Below are positions 37,204-49,450 of a DNA stretch of 64,000 bases, in pieces; the stretch's first letter is position 1, and the number at the start of each line of letters is the position of its first letter. The translations under genes were made by a program, and so were the position numbers. Below the pieces are notes generated by a model. That model ran no database searches. It saw nothing but the letters and a program-made list of their open reading frames with translations, and had not been told where the DNA came from. Source of the DNA: Treponema primitia ZAS-2 (GTDB taxonomy: Bacteria > Spirochaetota > Spirochaetia > Treponematales > Breznakiellaceae); assembly GCF_000214375.1 (NCBI RefSeq), contig NC_015578.1:372001-436000 (forward strand), in the 5' to 3' direction.

Positions 37204-37371
37204 ATAACGCATTACCATAAACCCCAGCCAACCATAACTCCAGCTAACCATAACGGCATGTATTACCGTAAACCCCCGCTAACCATAACCGTATGCATTA
37301 CCGTAACCCCCACCCAACCATACCAGCACGCAATACCTTAGGCCAAAGTTAACCATACCATCACGCAAAAC
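37204..37371 (+). repeat. 35-bp imperfect tandem repeat
   Basis: Four 35-bp units (37204-37238, 37255-37289, 37290-37324, 37325-37359), each with an ATTACC-like left part and ending AACCATAAC or AACCATACC. A 16-bp partial unit (37239-37254) follows unit 1 and another partial follows unit 4. Units are directly adjacent without unique spacers, so this is not a CRISPR array. Strongly C/A-biased on this strand, with no plausible reading frame. Confidence 0.75.
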
Positions 37372-37395
37372 TTGTTTTATCATACTGACCCAAGT

Positions 37396-37524
37396 CGGAG
37401 GGGGCGGGCAAATCCATCCCTCACCCGTTTCTGGAATTCTCTGCCGTAGCAGACTCGCAAAGCGAGGCTGACGAAGGCAGGTTCTACAGGTTAGGGTGAG
37501 GGGTGGATTTGCCCGCCCCCTCCG
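37396..37524 (+). repeat. Structured intergenic element, copy A
   Basis: Arms at 37396-37426 and 37494-37524 are complementary over 31 bp with a single G-U pair. They enclose a 67-nt core that matches copy B (49280-49342) almost base for base: TCTGGAATTC, CTGCCGTAGCAGAC, CTGACG, AGGCAG, TTCTACAGGTTA. Inside, CTGCC can pair with GGCAG around a small hairpin CTCGC-AAA-GCGAG. The outer arms differ in sequence from copy B yet still pair, which points to a selected structure. With the tandem repeat it fills the gap between hemerythrin and lon, 82 bases before the lon ATG. Confidence 0.8.
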
Positions 37525-49251: not shown

Positions 49252-49370
49252 GGGGAGGGAGGGCAAAGCCCCCCGGCCCGTCTCTGGAATTCCCTGCCGT
49301 AGCAGACCCGAAGGGGCTGACGGAGGCAGATTCTACAGGTTAGGGCTGGGGGGCTTTGCCCTCCCTCCCC
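49252..49370 (+). repeat. Structured intergenic element, copy B
   Basis: Arms at 49252-49279 and 49343-49370 pair over 28 bp with one G-U pair. The 63-nt core (49280-49342) matches copy A apart from a few bases and the inner hairpin, which here is CCC-GAAG-GGG instead of CTCGC-AAA-GCGAG. The arms (purine-rich GGGGAGGGAGGGC) are unlike those of copy A, apart from G-richness and a shared GGGCAAA, yet equally complementary. It ends 87 bases before the yjjI ATG, nearly the same spacing as copy A to lon. It fills most of the ecfT-yjjI gap; no gene is supported here. Confidence 0.8.
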
Positions 49371-49421: not shown

Positions 49422-49450
49422 TTGACTTTTCCCCCTGAAAATACTATTTT
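49422..49450 (+). promoter_or_regulatory. yjjI promoter, probably leaderless
   Basis: TTGACT (49422-49427), 17-bp spacer, TATTTT (49445-49450). The start point would coincide with the ATG at 49457, and there is no ribosome site. Confidence 0.5.

What the first reader, a model, noticed from the sequence alone, without database searches (positions are those of the whole stretch)
37396..37524. Undescribed structured element with covarying long stem (copy A, upstream of lon)
Seen directly: 31-bp complementary arms with one G-U pair enclose a 67-nt core that recurs at 49280-49342. The core is nearly invariant (TCTGGAATTC, CTGCCGTAGCAGAC, CTGACG, TTCTACAGGTTA), while the arms are largely different in sequence between the two copies (only general G-richness and a GGGCAAA stretch in common) yet pair fully in both. 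The inner hairpin changes too (CTCGC-AAA-GCGAG versus CCC-GAAG-GGG) and keeps pairing. Conserved single-stranded core plus covarying helices is the hallmark of a functional RNA or a hairpin DNA substrate. I do not recognise it as a known riboswitch, ribozyme or REP family.
Basis: seen in the sequence. Interest (0 to 1): 0.78.

Follow-up and report, generated by a model that had tools for sequence, protein, structure and literature searches.

The report
Mobile structured-RNA repeat of termite-gut treponemes
A hairpin noticed upstream of lon is one of about 50 copies in this genome of an undescribed, strongly covarying RNA-like element that also occurs in some 17 genera of the same spirochaete family and, in at least one lineage, spreads as a small transposable element, which points to a new RNA family carried by mobile DNA.

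Summary
Copy A (37396-37524) has 31-bp arms with one G-U pair around a 67-nt core; copy B is at 49252-49370. It is not a lon leader. The genome holds about 50 copies. Relatives occur in 49 of 200 genomes of the same family (17 of 57 genera), and none were seen outside the family. Rfam has no match. Sequence-unrelated arms of about 28-33 bp pair in nearly every copy, while a core with two internal loops is conserved across genera. One core pair is C-G, U-A or A-U in 126 of 126 copies.

Remaining arm mismatches are G·U rather than A·C (56:8 in this genome, 38:7 elsewhere), whatever the direction of the flanking genes, but not in the terminal inverted repeats (3:13). So the element's own plus strand folds, most simply as RNA. 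In one lineage the element has sharp ends, terminal inverted repeats shared with a Tn5/IS50-like IS, and 8-9 bp target-site duplications: there it is a MITE. In the window's own genome these ends and duplications are not clear.

I conclude it is a new structured-RNA module carried by MITE-like elements. What the RNA does, and whether it is transcribed, is not shown.

The parts
37396..37426 (+). Copy A, 5' arm of P1 (31 bp, G-rich)
37427..37493 (+). Copy A, conserved 67-nt core (GTTTCTGGAATTC .. TTCTACAGGTTA)
37431..37433 (+). Copy A, P1b 5' side (CTG), pairs with 37487-37489 (CAG); the C-G pair is C-G/U-A/A-U across copies with no violation in 126
37441..37445 (+). Copy A, P2 5' side (CTGCC), pairs with 37476-37480 (GGCAG); varies as TCCCC/GGGGA, CCGCC/GGCGG, CTGCT/AGCAG in other copies
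37454..37466 (+). Copy A, apical hairpin P3 (CTCGC-AAA-GCGAG), very variable in sequence and length between copies and genera
37494..37524 (+). Copy A, 3' arm of P1
37606..40047 (+).
   Evidence: ORF only
49252..49279 (+). Copy B, 5' arm of P1 (28 bp)
49280..49342 (+). Copy B, conserved core
49343..49370 (+). Copy B, 3' arm of P1
49422..49450 (+). Sigma-70-like promoter of the downstream gene (TTGACT-N17-TATTTT); it lies after copy B, so copy B is not in that gene's leader
   Evidence: consensus match only

Best explanation
The finding is one copy of an undescribed family of structured-RNA modules carried by small non-autonomous mobile elements (MITE-like) in the intergenic regions of termite/cockroach-gut treponemes. 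Shown: about 50 copies in this genome; a fixed architecture of a ~28-33 bp GC-rich stem P1, a conserved asymmetric internal loop with a short helix P1b, a 5-bp helix P2, a small GNA/GNA-like loop and a variable apical hairpin P3; massive covariation; and a pairing constraint that belongs to one strand of the element regardless of its neighbours. Shown in one lineage only: mobility, from terminal inverted repeats CTAAACTTGACCCAC, 8-9 bp target-site duplications, and an IS with the same ends encoding a Tn5/IS50-like (IS4-family) transposase. Inferred: the plus strand is transcribed and the conserved head is bound by a protein (host or transposon) in trans, so that selection keeps the RNA shape while the arms drift; and the window copies themselves descend from such insertions although their ends are no longer clear. 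The hairpin sits nearer to one end of the mobile unit, which would explain why its 3' side usually lies closest to a gene.
For: Copies. Other genera: 49/200 family genomes and 17/57 genera at E<=1e-6; core checked by eye in several genera. Covariation: 96.8% of cells paired, 267 double-change cells vs 76 shuffled, score 0.52 vs 0.155, falls to at most 0.17 when the partner is slid; P1b variable pair 126/126 complementary with three pair types; the position next to P2 is C·A 98 / U·G 15, isosteric wobbles. Strand: arms G·U:A·C 56:8 in own genome (P=5.6e-10) and 38:7 elsewhere, same for copies with both neighbours same-strand (17:1) or both opposite (14:2), but 3:13 in the outer terminal repeats. 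Mobility: sharp element edges in 17 copies of one MAG, 137 terminal-repeat matches with 0 control in that MAG, identity of 8 nt outside the two ends z=6.5 and z=6.6 over 63 elements, 11 with perfect 8- or 9-bp duplications, IS with identical ends and Pfam Tnp_DNA_bind 1.7e-5 and Dimer_Tnp_Tn5 7.6e-6.
Against: No transcript data: transcription is unproven and no consistent promoter was found upstream of the element. In the window's own genome no consistent terminal repeat or target duplication was found; one 9-bp candidate (CCTGGTAAG at 1498088) is within chance. The Tn5-like domain was not detected in the own genome or the other copy-rich genomes tested, so the mobilising enzyme there is unknown. 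Sequences flanking the hairpin differ between genera and even between classes in one genome, so 'one MITE family' is too simple; the RNA module may move between element types. The same strand asymmetry could in principle come from a strand-specific single-stranded DNA intermediate.
Confidence: 0.68

Rival explanations
1. Pure DNA palindrome: a MITE/REP-like repeat whose hairpin is kept perfect by DNA mechanisms (template switching in palindromes, cruciform recognition), with no RNA role.
For: Mobile ends and target duplications in one lineage; long near-perfect palindromes; intergenic; no transcript evidence; bacterial palindromic repeats are common.
Against: DNA processes treat both strands alike, yet G·U outnumbers A·C 94:15 in arms while the terminal repeats show 3:13. 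The central loops, not the ends, are the most conserved part across genera. C·A/U·G isosteric exchange at one core position.
Confidence: 0.17
2. Single-stranded-DNA substrate: the plus strand folds as ssDNA and is recognised by a strand-specific transposase such as Y1/TnpA-REP (REP/BIME-like) or a recombinase (attC-like).
For: Strand-specific pairing is expected; copies often occur as inverted pairs as in BIMEs; Y1 genes occur in the own genome (3) and in several relatives; Y1/RAYT-like genes lie between the same terminal repeats (L238, L240).
Against: Copy-rich genomes G021 and G025 show no Y1 gene, and G028 has 28 Y1 genes with no element (the two copy-rich ones are incomplete MAGs). TSDs of 8-9 bp and Tn5-like terminal repeats in one lineage point to a DDE enzyme.
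Confidence: 0.1
3. Cis-regulatory leader or riboswitch of the adjacent genes.
For: Both window copies lie about 75-85 nt before a same-strand ORF.
Against: About half of the copies face the 3' end of a convergent gene instead; the promoter of the gene after copy B lies downstream of the hairpin; the strand asymmetry is independent of neighbour orientation; copy number varies from 0 to about 50 between genomes.
Confidence: 0.02
4. Transcription terminator or 3'-end stabiliser dispersed as a repeat (SPRITE- or REP-like).
For: Copies facing a convergent gene lie a median of 37 nt from its stop codon in other genera, and 1-12 nt in one own-genome class; some insertion targets are GC-rich palindromes.
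Against: No U-tract follows the arms; the terminator scan finds none at copy A; the selected strand is opposite to the mRNA of those convergent genes; the conserved internal loops are unnecessary for a terminator.
Confidence: 0.03

Closest known systems
Pneumococcal BOX and RUP repeats (PMC3049150)
   Same: Small interspersed intergenic repeats, tens to over a hundred per genome, proposed to be mobilised in trans by an IS with matching ends, with predicted tightly folded transcripts.
   Different: Different host and sequence. Here the arms are unrelated in sequence between copies, the core is conserved across genera, and a one-strand G·U excess is shown. That paper's text holds no mention of compensatory changes.
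QMITE2 of Coxiella burnetii (described in the review PMC10969869)
   Same: MITE with 7-9 bp direct repeats, terminal repeats and a structured predicted transcript; sRNAs originate from such elements.
   Different: No similarity tested. The present element has a conserved internal-loop core and very long arms and occurs in many genera.
ERIC/IRU, REP/BIME and Correia palindromic repeats
   Same: Dispersed intergenic palindromes; BIME-like inverted pairs.
   Different: From general knowledge those have conserved stem sequences. Here stems are free in sequence and the central loops are fixed; no correlation with Y1/RAYT genes.
Repeat RNA motifs in Borrelia plasmid intergenic regions (PMC2674063)
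   Same: Spirochaete intergenic repeats with compensatory changes.
   Different: Borrelia plasmids, other motifs; sequence similarity was not tested.
Tn5/IS50 (IS4 family) insertion sequences
   Same: The IS with the same terminal repeats carries Tnp_DNA_bind and Dimer_Tnp_Tn5 domains and duplicates 8-9 bp.
   Different: The RNA element has no ORF; its terminal repeats in the window's own genome differ from this IS.

Membership tests
MITE (non-autonomous IS-derived element) | Terminal inverted repeats with sharp element edges | tested here: met
   Met in MAG Roe453_bin134 (G025) and related MAGs: CTAAACTTGACCCAC .. GTGGGTCAAGTTTAG. In the own genome only imperfect, class-specific outer repeats.
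MITE (non-autonomous IS-derived element) | Target-site duplication | tested here: met
   8-9 bp, z=6.5 and z=6.6 in the CTAAAC-ended elements.
MITE, copies of the window's own genome | Target-site duplication | tested here: inconclusive
   Direct repeats around own copies are at chance level; one 9-bp candidate at 1498088.
MITE (non-autonomous IS-derived element) | Ends shared with an autonomous IS | tested here: met
   IS of about 1.2-1.5 kb in G110, G112, G114 with the same ends and Tn5-like transposase domains, all copies seen with broken reading frames. Not found in the own genome.
Functional structured RNA | Compensatory changes beyond shuffles and slid controls | tested here: met
Functional structured RNA | Asymmetry of wobble pairs between strands | tested here: met
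   G·U:A·C 56:8 and 38:7 in arms; 3:13 in outer terminal repeats
Functional structured RNA | Transcription | not testable with these tools
   No RNA-seq available; no promoter found by consensus scan
Known Rfam families (release 15) | Score above a family's gathering threshold | tested here: not met
   None at gathering in the window; at permissive E-values essentially only animal/plant miRNA precursors and other below-threshold chance matches
REP/BIME mobilised by RAYT | Copies track presence of a Y1/RAYT gene | tested here: not met
   caveat of incomplete MAGs
Riboswitch / cis leader | Located in the 5' UTR of a coherent gene set | tested here: not met

The most novel reading that the evidence does not exclude
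A new class of structured RNA, with a fixed three-turn double-stranded stem and a conserved internal-loop head, that works in trans as a ribonucleoprotein (for example controlling transposition or host transcripts) and has been captured by several different types of small transposons, which spread tens of copies through genomes of one spirochaete family.
Probability: 0.3. Interest if true: 0.85.

Novelty: new variant of a known kind. Interest (0 to 1): 0.62.

Why it matters
Bacterial palindromic repeats are usually treated as DNA parasites. This one gives a clean sequence test that one strand is kept folded in about 50 copies per genome and across many genera, with the outer transposon ends of the same elements as an internal control. 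If the RNA is made, it is a new RNA family of wide distribution in uncultured gut spirochaetes, with a culturable host (if the genome is T. primitia) in which it can be tested. It would also show how a transposon can distribute a functional RNA.

Tried and rejected
Rfam at gathering and permissive thresholds: only below-threshold hairpin matches such as eukaryotic miRNA precursors. Lon leader or riboswitch: rejected on context. Y1/RAYT partner: no correlation. IS21-family partner: no match over the cut-off in 16 genomes. General insertion into palindromes: clear examples exist (L112, L143, L179, L235, L241) but the mean stem at target sites is not above partner-shuffled controls (4.41 vs 4.22, 33 of 300 shuffles at least as high), and folds of 13 reconstructed empty sites are only slightly better than shuffles (mean z -0.8), so it is left as a lead. 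Own-genome target duplications: at chance level. G055 element ends: no clear terminal repeat or duplication by eye. Virus collection: exact-pattern scan found nothing. Literature searches gave no description of this repeat in the held library.

Full report
Observation. Arms 37396-37426 and 37494-37524 make 31 pairs with one G·U; the core is 37427-37493. Copy B has arms 49252-49279 and 49343-49370 (28 pairs, one G·U). Both fold far more stably than dinucleotide shuffles (z -12.5 and -10.1).

Copies in the genome. BLAST with copy A gives 43 places. A covariance model from 36 copies gives about 50 distinct copies after leaving out the reverse-strand echoes of the same hairpins. The genome is one contig of 4,059,867 bp; from memory this length is that of Treponema primitia ZAS-2, which I could not verify here.

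Architecture. From outside in: P1 (about 28-33 bp, 5' arm G-rich), an internal loop, P1b (CUG/CAG in most copies), a larger loop (5' GAAUUC, 3' ACUCUA), P2 (5 bp), a small GNA/GNA-type loop, and an apical hairpin P3 that varies from a few to more than 40 nt. P2 alternates between CUGCC/GGCAG, UCCCC/GGGGA, CCGCC/GGCGG and CUGCU/AGCAG. On the 36-copy alignment 96.8% of cells are paired, with 267 cells changed on both sides against 76 in shuffles; the covariation score of 0.52 drops to at most 0.17 when partners are slid. The alignment is of paralogues that share ancestry, so these numbers are not independent events. Over 126 copies from many genera the variable pair of P1b is C-G 60, U-A 52 and A-U 14 with no exception, and the position next to P2 is C·A in 98, U·G in 15, U-A in 10 and C-G in 3; C·A and U·G are isosteric wobbles.

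Strand. If DNA processes kept the palindrome, G·T and A·C mismatches should be equally frequent, since one is the other read on the opposite strand. In the arms they are 56:8 in this genome (binomial P 5.6e-10) and 38:7 in other genera. The excess is the same when both neighbouring genes run with the element (17:1) and when both run against it (14:2). So the constraint belongs to the element's own plus strand, not to the mRNA of its neighbours. In the outer terminal repeats of the mobile form the counts are 3:13, and 10:7 for the inner repeat, which speaks against a general strand-specific mutation bias. A folded single-stranded DNA intermediate remains possible.

Context. By a crude gene finder written for this purpose, the copies lie between genes (at two of 65 places in other genera the estimated edge overlaps a predicted gene end). 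The 3' side is the nearer to a gene in nearly every copy of this genome and in most copies elsewhere. Facing a stop codon it lies a median of 37 nt away in other genera; facing a start codon it lies about 100 nt away, with room for a promoter. For copy B a sigma-70-like promoter lies after the hairpin (49422-49450). Eleven or more intergenic regions carry two copies, always with their 5' ends facing each other. In the mobile form the hairpin is off centre, with about 60-65 nt more on the left, which may explain much of this placement.

Distribution. None of 39 genomes from other families of the order match, and a sample of 393 genomes of the phylum, searched with a second, core-only model, gave hits only in the same family. 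An exact pattern scan of the named genome collection gave only Treponema/Spirochaetaceae records, nearly all MAGs, whose isolate names suggest insect-gut samples, and the viral collection gave none. Copies in one genome share an apical-domain type (for example GCGTATCGAAGATAGCG in G025, a long AT-rich P3 in G012), as expected if they multiply within a lineage. Divergent relatives with the same layout but a different 3' loop occur in other genera.

Mobility. In MAG Roe453_bin134 (G025) 17 aligned copies show conservation that stops sharply at CTAAACTTGACCCACAATTCAGGCGGTAAATTTATTACCC on the left and TTTTGTGGGTCAAGTTTAG on the right; the left end carries the repeat twice, about 64 nt apart. The repeat occurs 137 times in that MAG, with no match of the reversed control pattern. 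The eight bases outside the two ends are identical far above partner-shuffled controls (z 6.5; z 6.6 over 63 elements), with 11 perfect 8- or 9-bp duplications. The repeat occurs in 113 of 200 genomes of the family. Elements of about 1.2-1.5 kb with the same ends encode broken copies of a transposase with Pfam Tnp_DNA_bind (1.7e-5) and Dimer_Tnp_Tn5 (7.6e-6, just under its curated cut-off). From general knowledge Tn5/IS50 makes 9-bp duplications. So in this lineage the element is a MITE of a Tn5-like IS. In the window's own genome the outer sequences fall into at least three classes with other, imperfect outer repeats; target duplications there are at chance level, and the Tn5 dimerisation domain was not found. 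Mobility of the window copies is therefore inferred from relatives, not shown.

Mechanism. Most likely: a small transposon-borne RNA, transcribed from the plus strand, whose head is recognised by a protein while the stem only needs to be double-stranded and about three turns long. The selection on shape and strand is shown; transcription, the binding partner and the effect are inferred. Placement near gene ends may be only tolerance of insertion there. Some targets are clear palindromes (L112 CCCCGGGGCAAGCCCCCGGG, L143 CCGCGGAGCTTGCTCCGCGG, L179 TGGTTTAATACCCCG..CGGGGTATTAAACCA), but the average does not differ from shuffled partners.

Comparison. The nearest known things are RNA-folding MITEs such as pneumococcal BOX and RUP (PMC3049150) and Coxiella QMITE2 (PMC10969869), and palindromic repeats such as ERIC and REP. 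Rfam holds no relative. It differs in having a conserved head with sequence-free stems and a measurable one-strand pairing constraint across genera.

Verdict. A real, undescribed structured element; a new variant of MITE-like repeats that carries what looks like a new RNA family.

Noticed in passing
window 37209-37395: Degenerate tandem units of roughly 35-40 nt (GCATTACCGTAAACCCC..CTAACCATAAC) fill the intergenic stretch before copy A; similar units lie between paired copies elsewhere in the genome.
   Followed up: partly
G000:C1:700325, 802788, 2718216, 2917685 (L075, L076, L099, L102): Four own-genome copies carry a shared inserted domain (..GGCGTGGGGCTCAATAA..AAGCCCCCTT) directly before P2; in the copy at 700325 it visibly splits the GGAATTC loop.
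   Followed up: no
G000:C1:940645, 1033968, 1498088; L172, L174, L181, L185, L191: An extra hairpin (for example CCCACGCAAGTGGG or GGACCTGCAAGCAGGTCC) is added next to P1b in copies of two different genera, as if this loop accepts a third helix.
   Followed up: partly
L238 and L240: Y1/RAYT-like transposase ORFs lie between the same CTAAACTTGACCCAC terminal repeats, as if a Tn5-like IS carries RAYT genes as cargo.
   Followed up: no
L239, L241: Other small elements with the same terminal repeats but unrelated interiors (a 21-nt tandem repeat ATTCATGGAGTCAAGTTTTGA; a 226-bp MITE with duplication AGCTTGCT).
   Followed up: no
L234, L235, L236, L179, L155, L194: Flanks of several insertions look like one palindromic repeat family (..TTTAATACCCCGCC / GGCGGGGTATTAAA.. 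or GGCGGGGAGGTTCATT), possibly REP sequences used as targets.
   Followed up: partly
G000:C1:2822060 and 114341: Two copies have an arm broken by a long homopolymer (poly-C, poly-G).
   Followed up: no
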